Made by a program: the position numbers and the translations under genes
NCBI GenBank assembly: GCA_938007995.1
Contig: CALLLW010000010.1
Span: forward strand, 62,001-126,000
Reading direction: 5' to 3'
DNA: 64,000 nt
Source: an uncultured Granulosicoccaceae bacterium
GTDB lineage: Bacteria; Pseudomonadota; Gammaproteobacteria; Granulosicoccales; Granulosicoccaceae
Notes under the pieces: generated by a model
Database searches by the model: none
What the model was told of the DNA's origin: nothing
What the model saw: the letters and a program-made list of their open reading frames with translations, nothing else
Shown: positions 46,308-55,597 of the stretch, in pieces
How positions within the stretch are numbered: the first letter of the stretch is position 1
How the letters are laid out: each line of letters opens with the position of its first letter

Positions 46308-47297
46308 TTACTGATCTGTTTCAGGTAAAACGTCTATACCCTGTTGCTTCCAGAAGTATGGCAGATCGATAAACACCCAGTTTTCAGCCAGTTTGTTTTC
46401 TTTACGGCGATAAATATCCACTACTCTGAAATCAGCCGGTTTATTCGTTGCCGTATGACCCATAAATGAACCACTTAGTGTTGCGGTAAAGTTTGGCCAG
46501 CCAAAGAATCCACCATAGTGACCTTCTGCCAGTCTGCAAATATGGTTGGTTTGACTGCGCTCGCTAAAAGCTGCACGAAACGGTCTTGAGTGTTGTTCGG
46601 CGTATCGTTCAATCGTATAAGTGGAGCCAATGCCTTCCGGTCCCCACCAGATCATGTCCTCATGCCAGTCCTGTCTGAGCTCTTCTTCCAGAGGTAACGG
46701 ATTTTGCCACTGCCCCAGGTTACTTATCATTGAATTTATTTTTGCCAGTGTTGCCTCACCTGCGGCGGTGGCCTGTGGCTCAAACATCAAACCATCGTGA
46801 GTGGCAGGTCCGGGTTGGACAAGATGCTGCGCGGTTTGCGATGTAAAAGGTGATGCGCCTGCTTGCGCCATCAAATGCGGAATGTCGATATAACAGGCGG
46901 TTTCGGTAATTTTCGAGTTCACAACCCGATGAAACTCTGCATAACGCAGAAAAGCCATCTTGCCGGTTGGCTGTATGCCCAACCACGGTTTGTCAAACAA
47001 CCCCAGCCAGTGTCCCATCGACACCACCCAGGTCGACTGAAACCCGTCGAGCTGATTGGCACCGGCAAAAAAGATATCCTGTCGACGTTGTAAATGACTC
47101 AGTGCGTGACTCAGCGGGTGCCAGAACTGCGGTGTGAGGGTGTCGCGGCAGAGCAGATTAAACGGGTAGTAGCCGCGCCAGCAATAATCCGCTGCGGTAA
47201 ACTGGTGAATTATCTGATCGTCGGTATACCGGCTGGCCTCGAGCGCGTTGAAATACTCCAGAACTGTTTTTTTCTCAGCTTGAAAAGACATACACAC
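46308..47297 (-). CDS. SnoaL/NTF2-like tandem-domain protein
   Basis: A 329-residue protein with two NTF2-like cone domains (about 10-165 and 185-320). The second half, with DMIWWGPEGIGSTYTIERYAEQHSR and GSFMGHTATNKPADFRVVDIYR, resembles SnoaL polyketide cyclase-like proteins. Such domains act as isomerases, cyclases, hydrolases or binding proteins. It is divergent from the ABC binding-protein gene and convergent with pckA, and is similar in layout to the 328-residue protein at 52485, so it probably belongs to the same pathway. Substrate unknown. Confidence 0.8.
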   Translation of the reverse strand: MCMSFQAEKKTVLEYFNALEASRYTDDQIIHQFTAADYCWRGYYPFNLLCRDTLTPQFWHPLSHALSHLQRRQDIFFAGANQLDGFQSTWVVSMGHWLGLFDKPWLGIQPTGKMAFLRYAEFHRVVNSKITETACYIDIPHLMAQAGASPFTSQTAQHLVQPGPATHDGLMFEPQATAAGEATLAKINSMISNLGQWQNPLPLEEELRQDWHEDMIWWGPEGIGSTYTIERYAEQHSRPFRAAFSERSQTNHICRLAEGHYGGFFGWPNFTATLSGSFMGHTATNKPADFRVVDIYRRKENKLAENWVFIDLPYFWKQQGIDVLPETDQ

Positions 47298-47610
47298 CGT
47301 TTGCGGTTTTGATCGTTATTGCTGCCGTGCGGGTTCATGCCGCGAGTGAATATGGCATGCGGTGAAAAATAATTGCAAGCGTTGATCCATATCAGTCTGG
47401 TTCGAGGCCGAATTGCTCGACGCTGACTACCCGGGTGTGGGCAGCTATGCTGAAGAGGCAGCGCGATGCAGTCGCAAATAGAATATTCGATAACGCAAGA
47501 CCAAAAAAAACGATGCCCTGTGAATTGCCGTATTGCACCGGCACGCGATGTTCGTCATTATCACCCCAGCAGCGTATTTATTCCTCACGCGCTGATTTAG
47601 GAGACGATTG
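47298..47610. promoter_or_regulatory. Divergent region before the ABC transporter operon
   Basis: A 313-bp gap between the SnoaL-like gene and the binding-protein gene must hold two promoters. TTGCAAGCGTTG near 47373-47384 is a weak LacI-like half-operator. A strong ribosome-binding site AGGAGA (47599-47604) precedes ATG 47611. I see no gene or clear -35/-10 pair. Confidence 0.35.
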
Positions 47611-48855
47611 ATGATTTCATTTAAGAACACCCTGCTTACCGGCTCGCTGCTGCTCGCTTTTGCGGGCACAGTTCAGGCAGAGTCAGCTTGCGGAATTAAA
47701 CAGGGCACAATAAGCATCCTCGGAAATGACTTTCCGGCGCTGCACGCAGTGGTAGACGCGGCTGAAAAATGTGCCGGTGGTGATGTGACATTCTCGAAAA
47801 ACCACAGCAAAGACTTCAAGGACGTGATGATTGCGGCCTTAACCGCCGATCCGGCAGAGTACACCTCTGTGATCGTTAACAACGGTGTGCTGGTTACCCT
47901 GATGAACGACGGGCTGGTAAAACCTCTCGATGATCTGGTTGCCAAACACGGTGCTGCTCTAAAAAAGAATCAGCTAATCACAGTAGATGGCAAGGTCATG
48001 GCTGTGGCATTCATGGCCAATGCACAGCATTTGTTCTATCGCAAAGACATTCTTGATGCAGCTGGTGTAGAAGTTCCCACAAGCTATGAAGAAGTGCTCA
48101 GCGCCTCCAAAGCGATTCAGGACAAAGGTTTAATGGAATACCCTTACGCCGGTACATTTAAAGCCGGATGGAATCTGGGTGAAGAGTTTGTCAATATGTA
48201 TATGGGCACTGGCGGCAGTTTGTTCAAACCCGGGTCAGCAGAGCTCGACATTAACAACGAGCACGGTGTTGCGACACTAAACATGCTGAAGTCGTTGACT
48301 GAATATATGAATCCTGACTACCTGACCTTTGACTCCAATGTTGTACAGGCTGAATGGGAAGCGGGTAATGTAGCGCTTTCCAATCTGTGGGGATCGCGTA
48401 CCGCCGCAGTGCTGGATGATGAAGGCTCATCTGAAGAAGTCACCTCGGCAACCATGTTCACTGCAGCACCTGTCCTTGGTGGTGGTTCTACACCTTCAAC
48501 AACACTCTGGTGGGATGGCTTTGCGATATCTACCAACACCAGTAATGAAGATGCCGAAGCGACTTTCATCGCTATGATGAACGGTATATCTTCGGATGTA
48601 GCCAACAACAACGCTGACGAAGCAGTGTGGCTGATTGATGGTTATACACCGGGTGCTGCAGCAGTTGGTGTTGCAGAAACAGCCGCCGCCGGTGCAAAAC
48701 CTTATCCGATGGTGCCGTACATGGGCGCATTGCATGGTGCTGCAGGAGATGAGCTCTCTGATTTCCTTCAGGGCAATGAAGACGCTGAAACAGCGCTTGC
48801 AGATATTGAAGCGGCGTACGTGGCTAAAGCCAAAGAAGCGGGCTTCCTACAGTAA
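47611..48855 (+). CDS. ABC transporter sugar-type solute-binding protein
   Basis: A 414-residue periplasmic binding protein of the CUT1 sugar family. Residues 1-21 form a signal peptide ending in VQAES. The body shows NNGVLVTLMNDGLVKPLDDLVAKHG, YRKDILDAAGVEVPTSYEE and GTGGSLFKPG, as in maltose or glycerol-phosphate-type binders. I start at ATG 47611 after AGGAGA; a TTG at 47608 would add only one residue. A 10-bp stem-loop follows the stop, consistent with a higher level of this mRNA segment. The ligand may not be a sugar, given the genes downstream. Confidence 0.9.
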   Translation: MISFKNTLLTGSLLLAFAGTVQAESACGIKQGTISILGNDFPALHAVVDAAEKCAGGDVTFSKNHSKDFKDVMIAALTADPAEYTSVIVNNGVLVTLMNDGLVKPLDDLVAKHGAALKKNQLITVDGKVMAVAFMANAQHLFYRKDILDAAGVEVPTSYEEVLSASKAIQDKGLMEYPYAGTFKAGWNLGEEFVNMYMGTGGSLFKPGSAELDINNEHGVATLNMLKSLTEYMNPDYLTFDSNVVQAEWEAGNVALSNLWGSRTAAVLDDEGSSEEVTSATMFTAAPVLGGGSTPSTTLWWDGFAISTNTSNEDAEATFIAMMNGISSDVANNNADEAVWLIDGYTPGAAAVGVAETAAAGAKPYPMVPYMGALHGAAGDELSDFLQGNEDAETALADIEAAYVAKAKEAGFLQ

Positions 48856-48866
48856 AAGCCTGACAG

Positions 48867-48891
48867 GGCAGGGAGTACCGAACTCCCTGCC
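48867..48891 (+). terminator. Intercistronic stem-loop after the binding-protein gene
   Basis: GGCAGGGAGT (48867-48876) pairs perfectly with ACTCCCTGCC (48882-48891) around a five-base loop. No T run follows. It lies between the binding-protein and permease genes, where such hairpins usually stabilise the upstream mRNA and reduce read-through. Confidence 0.75.
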
Positions 48892-48921
48892 TTACTCGCT
48901 TCAAGTACACTATAAAATCCT

Positions 48922-49950
48922 ATGCCGCACAGGGCATTCTTCTGGTTTATTCTGCCGTCTGCGTTAGCGATGCTGCTGTTTATAGCCGTGCCAATAGCAT
49001 CGGTTGTGATTCAGTCGGTGCACATTGAACACCCCAAGGTGATGGAAGAAGTCGAGACCTGCGGGCCGTTTAACTGCACCACTGAAATGCGGGTTGATGC
49101 CGAGGCAACCGCAAAGCTCAAGCAAGCGGAGCCACTCGGTAAATTTATCGGGCTGGAAACTTATTTCAATCGCAACCATCTGGCAATTGATTCAGTTAAA
49201 ACACAGTGGCAGCAACGAGACGGCTTTTTTTCGTTTGTTCGCGGCTTGTACAATCTGCCATTCTACAAAGCGCTGTCATTTACACTGGTTTATACATTTG
49301 TTGTTACGCCGCTGGTTATCGTGCTTGGCTTTATGATTGCGCTCGCGGTCAATTCCATTCCGAAAATTCTGCGCGGGCCTGCAATATTTGTGTCGTTATT
49401 ACCGATGATAGTAACGCCGTTGATCGGGTCGCTGGTGCTGTTCTGGATGGTCGATGCCAATGGCGTTCTCGGTTCAGCTATTCAGCGTATTTTTGATGAT
49501 CCGAATCTGTCACTTAAGGCGTCACCACCACTGACCTGGATCATGTTACTGGTCTATGGCGTATGGCATTCAGCACCATTTGCGTTCGTGGTTTTTTATG
49601 CAGGCCTGCAAACCGTTCCACAGGATACGCTCGAATCAGCCATGATTGATGGTGCCAGTCGCTGGGAACGGATTCGCTTTGTGGTACTGCCACATTCGGC
49701 ACCGCTGGTGACATTCGTTGGCTTGATACAGTTGATGGATAACTTCAGAGTCTTTGAACCGATCGTCGGGTTCAATGCGTCTGCCAGTGCCACCTCGTTG
49801 TCGTGGATTATCTTTAATGATTTGTTTGGACAACAGCAGTTGTTCGGTTCTGCGGCAGCTACGTCATTGCTGACTATCCTCGGCGTCTGCATCTTATTGA
49901 TGCCGGTGCTGATCCGTACCTGGCGGCAGAACAATAGAGTCGTGGCTTGA
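48922..49950 (+). CDS. ABC transporter permease (MalF-like)
   Basis: A 342-residue inner-membrane permease with six or more helices and an N-terminal periplasmic loop between helices 1 and 2 (about 40-110) larger than usual. The coupling EAA motif is ESAMIDGASRWERIRFVVLP at about 236-255. It pairs with the MalG-like permease, whose start overlaps its stop (TGATG). Confidence 0.9.
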   Translation: MPHRAFFWFILPSALAMLLFIAVPIASVVIQSVHIEHPKVMEEVETCGPFNCTTEMRVDAEATAKLKQAEPLGKFIGLETYFNRNHLAIDSVKTQWQQRDGFFSFVRGLYNLPFYKALSFTLVYTFVVTPLVIVLGFMIALAVNSIPKILRGPAIFVSLLPMIVTPLIGSLVLFWMVDANGVLGSAIQRIFDDPNLSLKASPPLTWIMLLVYGVWHSAPFAFVVFYAGLQTVPQDTLESAMIDGASRWERIRFVVLPHSAPLVTFVGLIQLMDNFRVFEPIVGFNASASATSLSWIIFNDLFGQQQLFGSAAATSLLTILGVCILLMPVLIRTWRQNNRVVA

Positions 49951-50843
49951 TGACGTCACCTTCTGCTACTCAATATGGTAAAACATCGCCGCTGATTCGC
50001 TTGATCCTAAGCGCGTTTTTGATTGTCTGGATCGTTCTCGCCGCGTTTCCGTTTTTGTGGACGCTGTGGGGATCGTTCAAGGTAGAAGCCGATTTTTTCT
50101 CCAAGGTAGACTGGACATTCGCCTTAAGCGGTGAACGCACTATTGCCGAGACAGGCAGTGCTTTCACTGGCGCGGGCTACTATGGCGCGTGGGTGCAGGA
50201 AGAATTCTGGCGGGCAGCGTTGAATACCATGATCGTGACCTTTTTTGTCGTGATTATATCGCTGACGCTCGGTACGCTCGGTGGCTATGCGCTATCAAGA
50301 TCAGGCTTCCGCTATACGTTCTGGATTCTGATTGCAGCGCTGGTATTCAGGGCAATGCCGCACATCACACTGGTGTCCGGTTATTTGCTGCCGTTCTTTG
50401 AATTAAATATCTGGGGTATTTTGCCCACCACCATTGTGGTTCTGGTGGCAATTAATCAACCGTTTACGTTATGGATGCTGCATTCATTCTTTTTAAATAT
50501 ACCGAAAGATCTTGATGAAAGCGCATTAGTAGACGGCTGCACCCGCTTTCAGGCATTCAGGCATGTAATAGTGCCGGTAATGTGGCCCGGTGTGATCACC
50601 ACCGGATTGTTCAGCTTTCTACTGGCATACAACGACTTTGCCATTACCACCATGCTGTTAAGTCAGGATAACCAGACTATGGTGCCAAAGATCGGCAGCT
50701 TTTTAGGCACCACACAAGTGCAGGGTAACGTGATGTTTGCAGTTGCAGCTGTTGTGTCTGCCACCGCGCCGTTATTTATACTGGTGTTATTTTTTCAACG
50801 GCAAATTGTCAGTGGCCTCACCGCCGGTGCAGTGAAGGGATAA
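49950..50843 (+). CDS. ABC transporter permease (MalG-like)
   Basis: A 297-residue permease with about six helices. The EAA motif, ESALVDGCTRFQAFRHVIVP, is present at about 190-209. I choose ATG 49950, which overlaps the previous stop codon by one base; an upstream TTG at 49947 is less likely. It completes the membrane pore with the MalF-like protein. Confidence 0.9.
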   Translation: MTSPSATQYGKTSPLIRLILSAFLIVWIVLAAFPFLWTLWGSFKVEADFFSKVDWTFALSGERTIAETGSAFTGAGYYGAWVQEEFWRAALNTMIVTFFVVIISLTLGTLGGYALSRSGFRYTFWILIAALVFRAMPHITLVSGYLLPFFELNIWGILPTTIVVLVAINQPFTLWMLHSFFLNIPKDLDESALVDGCTRFQAFRHVIVPVMWPGVITTGLFSFLLAYNDFAITTMLLSQDNQTMVPKIGSFLGTTQVQGNVMFAVAAVVSATAPLFILVLFFQRQIVSGLTAGAVKG

Positions 50844-50846
50844 GCG

Positions 50847-51893
50847 ATGGCTGAAATCAGACTCAATAACATCAGTAAGAGATGGGGCAGTTTTGTTGGT
50901 GTTGACTCGCTTGATCTGGATATTGCCGATCAGGAGTTTCTGGTGTTGCTTGGTCCGTCGGGTTGTGGAAAAACCACTACCATGCGCATGGTTGCAGGAC
51001 TTGAAGCAGTCACCACCGGGGAGATTTATATCGGTGATCGCATGGTCAATAAGCTTGAACCGAAGGATCGCGATGTTGCAATGGTCTTTCAAAGCTACGG
51101 TCTTTACCCGAACATGACGGTCTATGAAAACATACGCTTTCCGCTAAAAGTTAGAAAAGTAGACAAGCATACACACCATGAGCGTGTCATGCGCGCAGCA
51201 GAGATGGTGGAGCTAACGGAGTTTTTACACAGAAAGCCCGCTGAGTTGTCCGGTGGACAAAGACAAAGGGTTGCACTGGCAAGAGCAATTGTCAGGGAGC
51301 CGACGGTATTTCTGATGGATGAGCCTCTATCAAACCTTGATGCAAAACTACGTGTTTCCACCAGAGCGCAAATCAAAAATCTACAGCACTCTCTGGCCAC
51401 CACCACTATTTATGTCACACATGATCAGATAGAAGCCATGACGCTGGCAGACAAAGTGGTGGTAATGAACAAAGGTATCGTGCAGCAAGTGGATACACCA
51501 ACGGCAATCTATGAAAATCCGGTGAATACGTTTGTTGCAGGTTTTATCGGATCACCGGCCATGAACCTGATCAATGGTGATTTGCATCAGGGGGTATTCA
51601 GAAGCCAGGATATAATCATTGACGGATTACCGACTGACTTCAGTGGTGATGTCACACTGGGTTTTCGTGCCGAAGACGCCACCATTGTCAGTGAGCGCGG
51701 CAATGCTGTTGCACCGGCTTATTCGATAGAACTGCTGGGTGAGGCAACCATGGTCACTATGCGTATTGGTGGAGCACTGGTGTCTGTGAAAGCGGCAAAA
51801 GATTTTCGAATTGATATAGGTGAAGTGGTGCATGCTCTTATACGGCCCGATATCTGCCATCTGTATGACTACAAAAGCGGCCAGCGTCTTTAA
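50847..51893 (+). CDS. ABC transporter ATP-binding protein (MalK/UgpC-like)
   Basis: A 348-residue ATPase with Walker A GPSGCGKT (36-43), Q-loop Gln82, signature LSGGQ (134-138) and Walker B FLMDEP (155-160). A C-terminal regulatory domain (about 240-348) is of the MalK/UgpC TOBE type. It lies three bases after the second permease and drives the importer. The downstream enzyme genes follow after 66 bp on the same strand. Confidence 0.93.
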   Translation: MAEIRLNNISKRWGSFVGVDSLDLDIADQEFLVLLGPSGCGKTTTMRMVAGLEAVTTGEIYIGDRMVNKLEPKDRDVAMVFQSYGLYPNMTVYENIRFPLKVRKVDKHTHHERVMRAAEMVELTEFLHRKPAELSGGQRQRVALARAIVREPTVFLMDEPLSNLDAKLRVSTRAQIKNLQHSLATTTIYVTHDQIEAMTLADKVVVMNKGIVQQVDTPTAIYENPVNTFVAGFIGSPAMNLINGDLHQGVFRSQDIIIDGLPTDFSGDVTLGFRAEDATIVSERGNAVAPAYSIELLGEATMVTMRIGGALVSVKAAKDFRIDIGEVVHALIRPDICHLYDYKSGQRL

Positions 51894-51959
51894 AGATCTG
51901 GTCGCACCGTTGTCACCTGTTTGCTGCACCTTTAACATAAGCAAAGGTAACTTATTACA

Positions 51960-52472
51960 ATGACTAGCGACGATTCTTCTCTGCAACAACATGCACGTCA
52001 GTCTGCAGAGACACTGGCGGCAGTGAAAGCCATGGAAGCCGGGCTTGCCGCCGGTGAGAACGAAATGGCGCGCTACTTTACCGAAGATTTTGTCTGGCGT
52101 GGTAACTACGGTTGTGGTTTAAAACAATCACTACAGGAATTTCGCGCCAACTGGCAATTACCGTTGCGAGCAGCATTTACTGACAGAGAGTATAAAACCG
52201 AAAAGTTCCTGTCAGACGGTGACTGGGCATCCTGCTTTGGTCATATTGAAGCGACTCATTCAGGCACTTTTATGGGAATTGCAGCGACCGGTAAACGGGT
52301 AAAAATTCCGTACATGGACTTCTGGCAGGTTAAAGACGGTCGTATCGCAGATAACCCGGTATCGGTTGATTTCGCCTCTGTGCTGTCTCAGCTGGGTGTT
52401 GATGTTTTTAATGGCGAGGGCTGGGAAAAGTATGATCAGGGTCAGGCAACGCCTCCGAAGCCATCAGAGTAA
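51960..52472 (+). CDS. SnoaL/NTF2-like protein (single domain)
   Basis: A 170-residue single NTF2-like domain with a helical N-terminus and the conserved ATHSGTFMGIAATGKRVKIPYMDFWQVKDGRI strand region, typical of SnoaL-like proteins. It is the first of a run of four genes with overlapping or close ends and should share a pathway with the 328- and 329-residue tandem proteins. Its catalytic role is unknown. AAAGG lies 13 bases before the ATG, a rather long spacing. Confidence 0.8.
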   Translation: MTSDDSSLQQHARQSAETLAAVKAMEAGLAAGENEMARYFTEDFVWRGNYGCGLKQSLQEFRANWQLPLRAAFTDREYKTEKFLSDGDWASCFGHIEATHSGTFMGIAATGKRVKIPYMDFWQVKDGRIADNPVSVDFASVLSQLGVDVFNGEGWEKYDQGQATPPKPSE

Positions 52473-52484
52473 AAGGTAGCCACC

Positions 52485-53471
52485 ATGCAAGGCTTTGATA
52501 AAAAATTTAAGGACTTCCCTGATTATATTCTGGGTATCACCTATGAGATCTGGGAGCAGCGCGGCGTTGAAACGCTAAACCATTACTATGCACCGGACAT
52601 TATTGTACGCTCACCAGCGTCTGTGGTGGTTGGCAACAAAACAGTCATTGATGCCACTCGTAAAACGCTGGATGAATTTCCGGACCGTGAGTTACTTGGT
52701 GAAGATGTGATCTGGAGTGGCACACCAGAGACTGGCATGCTCAGTTCTCACCGTATTCTTAGTACTGCCACGCATGTCAATGATGGTGCTTATGGGGCGG
52801 CTACCGGTAAACGTGTGACCTACAGAGTCATTGCTGACTGCCACGCAAAAAATAATGCCATTGATGATGAATGGCTGATCAGAGATCAATCAGCCATATT
52901 GCAACAGCTCGGGGTGGATCCCAAAACCTGGGTTGCACAGCAACTTGTACTTGACTCTGAAAGCAATACACCGGTTGCACCACTGACCCCTGAAAATGAC
53001 GTAAAAGGCCCGTATACAGGAACGGGCAATCAGAATGTCTGGGGGCAAAAGCTTGCTGATATTATTCAGCAGATCGTCGCTGGTAATCCCGATGTCATCG
53101 CAAACGAATACGACAGGGCGGCTCACCTGGAGTATCCGGGTTACCTGACACTGCACGGTGCCACTCAGGCGCAACACTTCTGGTCGCGGCTGGTCAGTTG
53201 TTTTCCAAACGCAACCTTTCGTATTGACCATCAGATAGGACGCGAAGATGAAACCCTGCCGCCCAGAGCTGCAGTACGCTGGAGCATCACCGGTACTCAT
53301 GACGGCGCCGGCTACTTTGGTGAGCCAACCGGTGCACCGGTGTATTTGCTTGGCATGACACACGCAGAGTTTGGGTCATTACATGGCAATACAGCCTCTG
53401 CAAAATTGCGCCGTGAATACACTCTGTTTGATGAAACCGCCGTCTGGAAGCAGATTCTGTCAAGCCACTGA
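52485..53471 (+). CDS. SnoaL/NTF2-like tandem-domain protein
   Basis: A 328-residue protein with two NTF2-like domains (about 5-160 and 185-325). The first has FDKKFKDFPDYILGITYEIWEQRG and ATGKRVTYRVIADCH; the second has GNPDVIANEYDRAAHLEYPGYLTLHG and ATFRIDHQIGRED. Both are SnoaL-like and could bind or isomerise a hydrophobic ring compound. AAAGGT precedes ATG 52485. It is 13 bases after the single-domain gene and six bases before the possible TTG start of the bicupin gene (53478). Confidence 0.82.
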   Translation: MQGFDKKFKDFPDYILGITYEIWEQRGVETLNHYYAPDIIVRSPASVVVGNKTVIDATRKTLDEFPDRELLGEDVIWSGTPETGMLSSHRILSTATHVNDGAYGAATGKRVTYRVIADCHAKNNAIDDEWLIRDQSAILQQLGVDPKTWVAQQLVLDSESNTPVAPLTPENDVKGPYTGTGNQNVWGQKLADIIQQIVAGNPDVIANEYDRAAHLEYPGYLTLHGATQAQHFWSRLVSCFPNATFRIDHQIGREDETLPPRAAVRWSITGTHDGAGYFGEPTGAPVYLLGMTHAEFGSLHGNTASAKLRREYTLFDETAVWKQILSSH

Positions 53472-53492
53472 GCCGCGTTGAGTGCAAGCACA

Positions 53493-54473
53493 ATGAAAGA
53501 AGTCAAAGTAGTCAGATACGCCGAGCTGGTGCCATGCAAAACTGCATTTATAGATGCACATACGCCCGGCTCTGATCAAAAAGAGAACTTCACCATCATC
53601 GGTGGTGGTGTCAGTGAAAGCCCTGATCAGCATGTGCACATAAAGGAAACACCAGGCTTTAACATCGGTGCTGCGGGTCAGCCACCTAACTGTAGAAACT
53701 CACTTCACTCGCATCGTACGGCAGAGGTGTTTTTTGTATTAAAAGGCCGCTGGCGTTTTTTCTGGGGACGCTATGGCACTGCAGGGCAGGTGGTACTAGA
53801 GGAAGGCGATATCATTAATATACCCACCGGCATTTTCCGTGGCTTTGAAAACATTGGTACTGACTACGGCATGATCATGGCGGTACTGGGTGGTGATGAC
53901 GCAGGCGGTGGCGTGGTCTGGGCACCGCAGGTAATTGAAGATGCAGCTGATCACGGATTGGTGCTTTCTGAAAAAGGCTCGCTGATAAATACCGCAGCGG
54001 GAGAATCACTGCCTGCAGGTGTTGCAAAAATGCCGTTGCTAACCGAGTCAGAACTGGCTGAGTTTCCCGAGCCTTCGGCACAGCAGGTCGTGCCGAACTA
54101 TGTTGCCCGTTACTGGGATCTAATGGCTTTATCTGATAACGATGCCTGCCATGTGATTGGTGATGGTGCCGTATTGCAGGACAAGCCGGGCTTTGATTGT
54201 CACTTTTTATCAGCTAACTCTGTCGCTAATGATAATTTAAGCAAGGCCAGCCATTTCGACGGTCATGAAGTTTTTATGTGCATGCGTGGTCACTGGTCGC
54301 TGGAGAGTGAGTCCGGTATAACGCTATTGGCTCCGGGTGATACAGCGTGGGTGCCACCGGGTCTTAAAAAAAGTATCAAACCATCCATGTCAGGTGAAGC
54401 CAGCTTATACCGAATTCGTTCCAACGATGATCCGGCTGGTTTAACGCAAGGCTTCAAAGGAGGTCATTCATGA
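53493..54473 (+). CDS. Bicupin protein
   Basis: A 326-residue protein with two cupin barrels. In the first, His72, His74 and Glu78 (LHSHRTAEVFFVLKG) look like metal ligands; in the second, His254, His258 and Glu259 (SHFDGHEVFMCMRGHW) do. This layout is shared with gentisate- or quercetin-type dioxygenases and with sugar isomerases, but the reaction cannot be read off. I start at ATG 53493; a TTG at 53478 would add five residues. The stop overlaps the methyltransferase start by ATGA. Confidence 0.8.
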   Translation: MKEVKVVRYAELVPCKTAFIDAHTPGSDQKENFTIIGGGVSESPDQHVHIKETPGFNIGAAGQPPNCRNSLHSHRTAEVFFVLKGRWRFFWGRYGTAGQVVLEEGDIINIPTGIFRGFENIGTDYGMIMAVLGGDDAGGGVVWAPQVIEDAADHGLVLSEKGSLINTAAGESLPAGVAKMPLLTESELAEFPEPSAQQVVPNYVARYWDLMALSDNDACHVIGDGAVLQDKPGFDCHFLSANSVANDNLSKASHFDGHEVFMCMRGHWSLESESGITLLAPGDTAWVPPGLKKSIKPSMSGEASLYRIRSNDDPAGLTQGFKGGHS

Positions 54474-55597
54474 GCCGTATTCTTTGCACGCATGTGGGAT
54501 CACTGCCTCGCTCGCAACCGGTGGTTGATTATATTTTTGCCCGTGAGCACGAAGAGCAATACGACGAACATGCGTTTGATCAATGCATGGCAGAAGCGGC
54601 AGCAGAGACTGTGGCCAAACAAAAAGCAGCCGGTGTTGATATTGTCTCTGATGGTGAGACCTCTAAAATCAGTTACGCCACTTATGTCAAAGACCGATAC
54701 ACCGGTTTTGCAGGAGACAGCCCGAGGAATGCACCGGCTGATCTTAAGTTGTTTCCGGGATTTCTGAAGCGGCTTGCAGATGATGGAGGAACGCCGCAAT
54801 ACGCCCGCCCTATGTGTGTTGGAGAAGTAAAATCCAAAGGGCAGGACGAGCTTAAAAAGGACATAGCCAATCTAAAGAAAGGGATGCAGCAGTCCGGTAT
54901 TGAACGTGGCTTCATGAATGCTGCAAGCCCCGGAGTGATCTCTTTATTCCTGCAAAATGATTATTACGCTGATCGTGAAGCGTATCTGGCCGCACTGGCT
55001 GATGCAATGAAGCAGGAGTACGAAACCATTGTCGCCAGCGGGCTCGACATACAGCTCGATTGTCCTGATCTGGCACTCTCGCGGCACATGTTATTCAGCG
55101 ACTTATCGGATGATGAGTTTCTGAAGATTGCAAAGCTCCATGTAGAGGCGCTTAATCATGCGCTAAGTGATGTGCCTGAAGAAAACATCCGTATTCATAT
55201 TTGCTGGGGTAACTACGAAGGTCCGCACTGTTGCGATATTGGTATGGATAAAGTCTTTGATGTGCTGATGTCCACCAGGTCGCGCTATGTGTTGTTTGAA
55301 ACATCCAACCCGAGACACGCGCATGAGTGGGCAGTCTTTCGTGACCGCAAAAATGAGATCCCTGAAGATAAAATACTGGTACCCGGTGTAGTGGATACCA
55401 CCACCAATTTTATTGAACATCCGCAGTTAGTGGCGCAAAGGCTTCAACGCTTTGTTGATATTGTTGGCTCTGATCGGGTGGTAGCCGGATCTGACTGCGG
55501 TTTTGGTACGTTTGCGGGCTTTGGTACGATTGATCCGGAAATCGCATATGCCAAGCTGGAGGCGATGCGTCAGGGGGCGGACCTGGTATCAGGCTGA
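54470..55597 (+). CDS. MetE-like cobalamin-independent methyltransferase
   Basis: A 375-residue protein matching the C-terminal catalytic half of cobalamin-independent methionine synthase. Zinc ligands are present: His243 and Cys245 (HICWGNYEG), Glu277 (FETSN) and Cys343 (SDCGFG). The N-terminal folate-binding-like half of MetE is absent. Members of this family move a methyl group from small donors or act on coenzyme M-type or other thiols. It may demethylate the imported compound or an intermediate, with homocysteine as acceptor. It is translationally coupled to the bicupin and ends the operon. Confidence 0.84.
   Translation: MSRILCTHVGSLPRSQPVVDYIFAREHEEQYDEHAFDQCMAEAAAETVAKQKAAGVDIVSDGETSKISYATYVKDRYTGFAGDSPRNAPADLKLFPGFLKRLADDGGTPQYARPMCVGEVKSKGQDELKKDIANLKKGMQQSGIERGFMNAASPGVISLFLQNDYYADREAYLAALADAMKQEYETIVASGLDIQLDCPDLALSRHMLFSDLSDDEFLKIAKLHVEALNHALSDVPEENIRIHICWGNYEGPHCCDIGMDKVFDVLMSTRSRYVLFETSNPRHAHEWAVFRDRKNEIPEDKILVPGVVDTTTNFIEHPQLVAQRLQRFVDIVGSDRVVAGSDCGFGTFAGFGTIDPEIAYAKLEAMRQGADLVSG

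What the first reader, a model, noticed from the sequence alone, without database searches (positions are those of the whole stretch)
46308..55597. Sugar-type ABC importer linked to SnoaL-like, bicupin and MetE-like enzymes: a possible undescribed catabolic pathway
A CUT1-style ABC importer is followed by a single and a tandem SnoaL-like protein, a bicupin and a MetE-like zinc methyltransferase, in close or overlapping order, with another tandem SnoaL-like gene divergent from the importer. Five NTF2-like domains in one locus, with a methyltransferase but no usual sugar kinase, dehydrogenase or hydrolase, match no pathway I know. Import and demethylation of a methylated ring or polyol-like compound, with the methyl passed to a thiol, is one reading.
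Basis: partly seen in the sequence, partly recalled or inferred. Interest (0 to 1): 0.72.

Follow-up and report, generated by a model that had tools for sequence, protein, structure and literature searches.

The report
Methyl-recovering operon, possibly eating algal sunscreens
A gene cluster found, with variations, in many sea and soil bacteria encodes an importer and enzymes predicted to break down a methylated ring compound, likely of the kind that makes up natural algal sunscreens, and it would likely save the compound's methyl group as methionine.

Summary
In detail: 46308-55597 holds a CUT1 importer, three SnoaL-like genes (five NTF2-like domains), a bicupin and a single-domain MetE-like protein. 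It is no local oddity. The MetE-like protein recovers 80 kept loci, mostly Rhodobacteraceae, and bicupin, SnoaL, LacI, HisD-like and SDR genes sit beside it in 65-76 of the 80. The window's own genome keeps a HisD-SDR pair on another contig. The MetE-like protein keeps the zinc and homocysteine residues but has no folate domain, in a genome that has MetH: a likely catabolic homocysteine methyltransferase. A HisD-less variant carries 3-oxo-tetronate kinase instead. One scaffold fits these parts: a C7 cyclitol with a methoxy-enol ring and a C(OH)(CH2OH) centre, i.e. gadusol/mycosporine. Ring opening would then give pyruvate plus oxaloacetate or 3-oxo-tetronate. The substrate is inference only; nothing was assayed. 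Ten paper searches found no described pathway in the library held.

The parts
46308..47297 (-). tandem SnoaL-like protein (SnoD), divergent from the importer
   Evidence: homologues near the importer in relatives
47608..48855 (+). CUT1 solute-binding protein (SBP_bac_1)
48922..49950 (+). importer permease 1
49947..50843 (+). importer permease 2
50847..51893 (+). importer ATPase, UgpC/MalK type (over the curated cut-off of NF008653)
51960..52472 (+). single SnoaL-like protein (Sno1)
52485..53471 (+). tandem SnoaL-like protein (Sno2), two NTF2-like domains
53478..54473 (+). bicupin; HxHx3E metal site in the first cupin, invariant Arg where the second cupin motif usually has its His (motif recalled); nearest folds are ring-cleaving bicupin dioxygenases
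54470..55597 (+). MetE-like single-domain (folate-free) zinc methyltransferase

Best explanation
This nine-gene importer-and-enzyme locus, which in relatives also carries dehydrogenase, hydrolase and aldolase genes, is predicted to import a methylated ring polyol, likely a mycosporine/gadusol-type C7 cyclitol, and would break it down to pyruvate and a C4 acid while likely passing its methyl group to homocysteine. Shown: gene content, conservation, intact active-site residues, predicted folds. Inferred, step by step: the CUT1 importer takes the compound up; SnoaL-like enzymes (and an amidase in some relatives) remove the amino-acid arms or rearrange the enol ring; the HisD-like dehydrogenase oxidises the CH2OH on the tertiary carbon to COOH; the MetE-like enzyme moves the enol-ether methyl to a zinc-bound homocysteine, giving methionine; the bicupin opens the resulting reductone ring with O2; the alpha/beta hydrolase cleaves an ester or ring intermediate; RraA or HpcH/HpaI aldolase splits the C7 acid (4-carboxy-4-hydroxy-2-oxoadipate for 4-deoxygadusol) into pyruvate and oxaloacetate. 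In the HisD-less variant the same cut on gadusol would give pyruvate and 3-oxo-tetronate, the substrate of the OtnK found there. The SDR step is unassigned.
Confidence: 0.33

Rival explanations
1. The same operon logic (import, oxidation, methyl transfer to homocysteine, aldol cleavage) serves another methylated compound: an O-methyl cyclitol or sugar, or a betaine-type osmolyte or betaine-lipid head group. The MetE-like enzyme takes an N-, S- or O-methyl group from it.
For: CUT1 importer and LacI regulator suggest a sugar- or polyol-like compound; the zinc/homocysteine site suits any activated methyl donor; rhizobia, Deinococcus and Priestia carry the core, which fits a substrate wider than marine sunscreens.
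Against: Does not by itself explain the bicupin, the exchange of RraA for HpcH/HpaI, or OtnK in HisD-less loci.
Confidence: 0.37
2. The core is a pathway for ascorbate-like or lactone sugar acids: the bicupin splits an enediol, the alpha/beta hydrolase frees a C4 acid, and HisD-SDR or OtnK-OtnC consume it. MetE-like and SnoaL genes serve derivatives.
For: OtnK and OtnC with bicupin, hydrolase and HpcH in four plasmid loci; the hydrolase's best NCBIfam scores are enol-lactonases, far below cut-off.
Against: No tetronate dehydrogenase is annotated in the four OtnK operons; leaves the aldolase, amidase and MetE-like parts without a clear role.
Confidence: 0.12
3. The MetE-like protein is not a methyltransferase here; it uses its zinc-thiol site for another step such as opening an activated ring by thiol addition, as epoxyalkane:CoM transferase of the same superfamily does (recalled).
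For: Family-level resemblance only (scores far below methionine-synthase cut-offs); loci without the gene exist.
Against: All three homocysteine-binding and four zinc positions of MetE are kept.
Confidence: 0.12
4. A small biosynthetic (polyketide-type) cluster, as the SnoaL annotation suggests.
For: SnoaL/AclR/IdmH folds.
Against: No synthase among the nine genes; importer, LacI, HisD, SDR and class II aldolase point to catabolism.
Confidence: 0.03

Closest known systems
Core (folate-free) methionine synthases MesA-MesD and the catalytic domain of MetE (PMC7857596)
   Same: Single domain, same zinc (H, C, E, C) and homocysteine (S, E, D) residues
   Different: Only 27.6 bits by phmmer to the MesD structure 3rpd, encoded in a catabolic operon, in a genome with MetH; methyl donor likely a catabolic substrate. 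MesA-C were not compared one by one
Salicylate/gentisate 1,2-dioxygenases and quercetin 2,3-dioxygenase (bicupins)
   Different: No PDB sequence match at E 0.001; HxHx3E plus Arg instead of the usual last His
HpsN, sulfopropanediol (DHPS) dehydrogenase of the HisD family
   Same: Best PDB matches of a cluster HisD-like protein (E 4e-107)
   Different: Different gene company; substrate unknown; this genome has a further, 46% identical HisD-like gene on C4
3-oxo-tetronate pathway (OtnK, OtnC, OtnI)
   Same: OtnK over its equivalog cut-off in 4 of 4 and OtnC in 3 of 4 HisD-less plasmid loci
   Different: No dehydrogenase that makes oxo-tetronate is annotated in those operons; combined with bicupin, hydrolase and HpcH aldolase
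HMG/CHA aldolases of the RraA family and HpcH/HpaI aldolases
   Same: Families by Pfam; E-x20-R-D-x2-[ED] in 58 of 59 RraA proteins, near the recalled [DG]-x20-R-D-x2-[ED] motif
   Different: LigK/PcmE model only 25 bits against a cut-off of 304.5 for the one protein scanned

Membership tests
CUT1 ABC importer | SBP_bac_1 binding protein, two BPD_transp_1 permeases, MalK/UgpC-type ATPase in one operon | tested here: met
SnoaL-like (NTF2 superfamily) | SnoaL Pfam match and alpha+beta cone fold | tested here: met
MetE catalytic domain / core methionine synthase | zinc ligands H, C, E, C | tested here: met
   25 of 25 aligned, motifs in 96 of 96 near-full ORFs (residues from PMC7857596)
MetE catalytic domain / core methionine synthase | homocysteine residues S, E, D | tested here: met
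   25 of 25
MetE catalytic domain / core methionine synthase | lack of the folate-binding domain (core type) | tested here: met
   375 aa, PF01717 only
MesD | close sequence similarity (the paper's cut is 390 to ACIAD3523 by BLASTp) | tested here: not met
   by proxy: 27.6 bits by phmmer to 3rpd, a MesD; ACIAD3523 itself not compared
MesD | partner MesX (DUF1852) | tested here: inconclusive
   no match in this genome, but the controls rang nowhere
Gentisate/salicylate dioxygenase bicupins | bicupin fold | tested here: met
   other cupins score nearly as high
Gentisate/salicylate dioxygenase bicupins | three-His iron site (recalled) | tested here: not met
   HxHx3E and an Arg at the usual third His in 105 of 105
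Gentisate/salicylate dioxygenase bicupins | O2-dependent ring cleavage | not testable with these tools
   needs enzyme assay
Mycosporine/gadusol catabolic pathway (proposed) | growth on or turnover of the compound | not testable with these tools
   inference from enzyme classes only

The most novel reading that the evidence does not exclude
This is the genetic pathway by which bacteria eat mycosporine/gadusol sunscreens: NTF2-type enzymes strip the amino acids, a fifth, catabolic family of folate-free MetE moves the enol-ether methyl straight to homocysteine, a bicupin opens the naked reductone ring, and a class II aldolase yields pyruvate plus oxaloacetate (or 3-oxo-tetronate in the OtnK variant).
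Probability: 0.28. Interest if true: 0.88.

Novelty: new variant of a known kind. Interest (0 to 1): 0.62.

Why it matters
The operon recurs across Rhodobacteraceae and other surface-ocean lineages, so its substrate should be a widespread part of marine organic matter whose breakdown genes are not known. A methionine synthase that takes its methyl group directly from a food molecule would be a new branch of one-carbon metabolism. If the substrate is a mycosporine or gadusol, it would supply the missing genes for turnover of a major natural sunscreen class.

Tried and rejected
Homarine as substrate: two paper searches (listings of 5 and 10 papers, none opened for it) gave no lead; dropped. Searches for a described pathway by enzyme names gave 0 papers; searches on mycosporine or gadusol breakdown by bacteria gave 0, 2, 3, 24 and 6 papers, seen as listings (15 of the 24 listed); of these only PMC3083659 was opened (passages), and it names Vibrio harveyi but no genes in the passages seen.

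A shared LacI-type operator between 47298-47607 and the promoter side of the HisD-SDR pair in L115: none found. Neighbours of the MetE-like gene where it lies outside the operon (L162-L165) were uninformative in the five genes scanned from L163, L164 and L165; L162 was not scanned. A canonical [GD]-x20-RD motif scan of RraA gave 0 of 59; with Glu at the first place it gave 58 of 59. RraA is not found in this genome (that search had no positive control). The mutual-exclusion counts use 19 of 52 plasmid records with a bicupin match, chosen by hand to spread over taxa; 33 were not opened, and one of the 19 (L142) is cut at a record end. A tblastn check of the 19 gave the same counts; for the hydrolase it found 17, and an eighteenth (L144) is by annotation only. 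Pantothenate, kojate, apiose and betaine-lipid head groups were weighed from recall; the first three were set aside because they leave more parts unexplained, the last is kept within a rival.

Full report
What is there. Pfam confirms each class and NCBIfam the importer type; five NTF2-like domains are present. Base composition does not set the locus apart.

Conservation. The MetE-like protein found 201 relatives in genome contigs; the best 80 were kept, mostly Rhodobacteraceae by record title, with a few gammaproteobacteria and others. In these 80 (ORFs matched by BLAST at 80 bits or more, with identity floors for HisD, SDR, LacI and hydrolase) the bicupin is seen in 75, Sno2 in 76, Sno1 in 57, SnoD/E in 65, LacI in 75, HisD-like in 67, SDR in 65, the hydrolase in 52, RraA in 48, HpcH in 2, the binding protein in 44; 58 of the 80 are 18 kb or longer, the rest are shorter. 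A bicupin ends within 1.5 kb upstream of the MetE-like gene, same strand, in 66 of 80. In 57 genomes around the window's own (36 of its family), bicupin is in 30, MetE-like (55% identity or more) in 30, Sno2 in 28, HisD-like orthologue (73% or more) in 29; all four in 25, none in 24; Fisher p within the family of 36 from 1.4e-5 to 7.6e-3. Relatedness is not corrected. One MetE hit at E 5.5e-7 (G017) was left out of that count; partial bicupin matches were kept in.

The missing enzymes. In relatives the operon adds a HisD-family dehydrogenase whose best PDB matches are DHPS dehydrogenases (one protein), an SDR, a LacI regulator, an alpha/beta hydrolase and an RraA-type aldolase. In the window's genome a HisD-like gene (77% identical) and an SDR lie together on contig C25; an HpcH/HpaI aldolase (48%) lies on C6; RraA was not found, the hydrolase only weakly, LacI only distantly. 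The assembly is 94 contigs and 91% complete, so absence is weak.

Modules. I opened 19 of the 52 plasmid records with a bicupin match and checked gene presence by tblastn. Cupin, hydrolase and one aldolase occur in the same fetched stretch in 18 of 19 (the hydrolase by annotation only in L144); the aldolase is RraA in 8, HpcH-type in 10, never both. HisD is in 13, OtnK in 4, both in none, neither in 2. SnoaL genes are in 13, the MetE-like gene in 2. Deinococcus and Priestia have a single-cupin form. In three same-family relatives the MetE-like gene sits with HisD, SDR and a more distant bicupin, with no SnoaL detected (L157-L159), and in two it sits with HisD and SDR but no bicupin (L160, L161). 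So cupin, hydrolase and aldolase look like a lower pathway; HisD and SDR, SnoaL genes, importer and MetE-like look like upper-pathway parts.

MetE-like. PMC7857596 (abstract; passages) lists the E. coli MetE residues: zinc H641, C643, E665, C726 and homocysteine S433, E484, D599. The matching positions here (S11, E63, D197, H243, C245, E277, C343, placed from the alignments to 3rpd, 1ypx and 1u1h) are invariant in 25 of 25. There is no folate domain, the protein is far from MesD (27.6 bits to 3rpd), and the genome has a MetH over its cut-off. The simplest reading is a catabolic homocysteine methyltransferase that uses an activated methyl group of the imported compound; the donor is inferred.

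Retro-synthesis (inference; structures recalled). 4-Deoxygadusol has a 2-methoxy-enol ring and a C5 with OH and CH2OH. CH2OH to COOH (HisD), loss of methyl (MetE-like) and O2 cleavage of the 2,3-enediol (bicupin) give 4-carboxy-4-hydroxy-2-oxoadipate, whose aldol cleavage gives pyruvate and oxaloacetate (RraA or HpcH). Gadusol, with one more ring OH and no HisD step, would give pyruvate and 3-oxo-tetronate, the substrate of the OtnK that stands in the HisD-less loci of Vibrio, Salinivibrio, Thioclava and Ensifer NER9; Ensifer has no OtnI annotated there and none of the four has an annotated tetronate dehydrogenase (elsewhere in those genomes was not searched). The tertiary carbinol is what lets an aldol cut give a keto acid. 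Where the MetE-like gene is absent, the ring could be cut with the methyl in place and the hydrolase would act on a methyl ester. Against: the fit was made after the fact, the SDR has no step, nothing points to nitrogen, and substrate and order are untested.

Literature. Ten searches of the held library listed no paper that describes this gene set or bacterial genes for mycosporine breakdown (two papers were opened). [quoted passage not shown] Subscription papers and preprints are not in the library, so novelty is provisional.

Verdict. A real, widely conserved, apparently undescribed catabolic operon with known enzyme families in a new combination. The generic reading (import, oxidation, methyl transfer to homocysteine, aldol cleavage) I hold at about 0.7; the sunscreen substrate at about 0.3.

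Noticed in passing
L157 5918-12201, L158 5776-12044: Compact operon LacI-HisD-SDR-bicupin-MetE-like-hydrolase with no SnoaL gene detected and only 39-41% bicupin identity: a likely sister pathway that would show which step the MetE-like enzyme serves.
   Followed up: partly
L114 7291-12578, L143 9001-14357, L144 3177-10113, L145 6299-11596: HisD-less variant with OtnK/OtnC next to bicupin, HpcH and hydrolase, no tetronate dehydrogenase annotated.
   Followed up: partly
L146 8938-9561, L147 8938-9555: Single-cupin versions of the core with SnoaL, HisD, SDR and LacI in Priestia and Deinococcus.
   Followed up: partly
L116 9345-10646: A second HisD/HpsN-like gene (46% to the cluster type) with LacI-like and HpcH-like genes nearby on contig C4 of the window's genome; could be a DHPS-type pathway.
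   Followed up: no
L162-L165: The MetE-like gene lies apart from the operon in four relatives that also have the bicupin; neighbours scanned are two peptidyl-prolyl isomerases and a phosphoesterase in L165, a phosphoesterase in L163 and a DUF1045 gene in L164.
   Followed up: partly
L109 15939-16541: A SAM-dependent methyltransferase gene annotated between bicupin and MetE-like gene in Ruegeria sp. THAF33.
   Followed up: no
L097 (G003:C70:35427-36383): The match to the bicupin in one same-genus genome is listed with one TAG stop.
   Followed up: no
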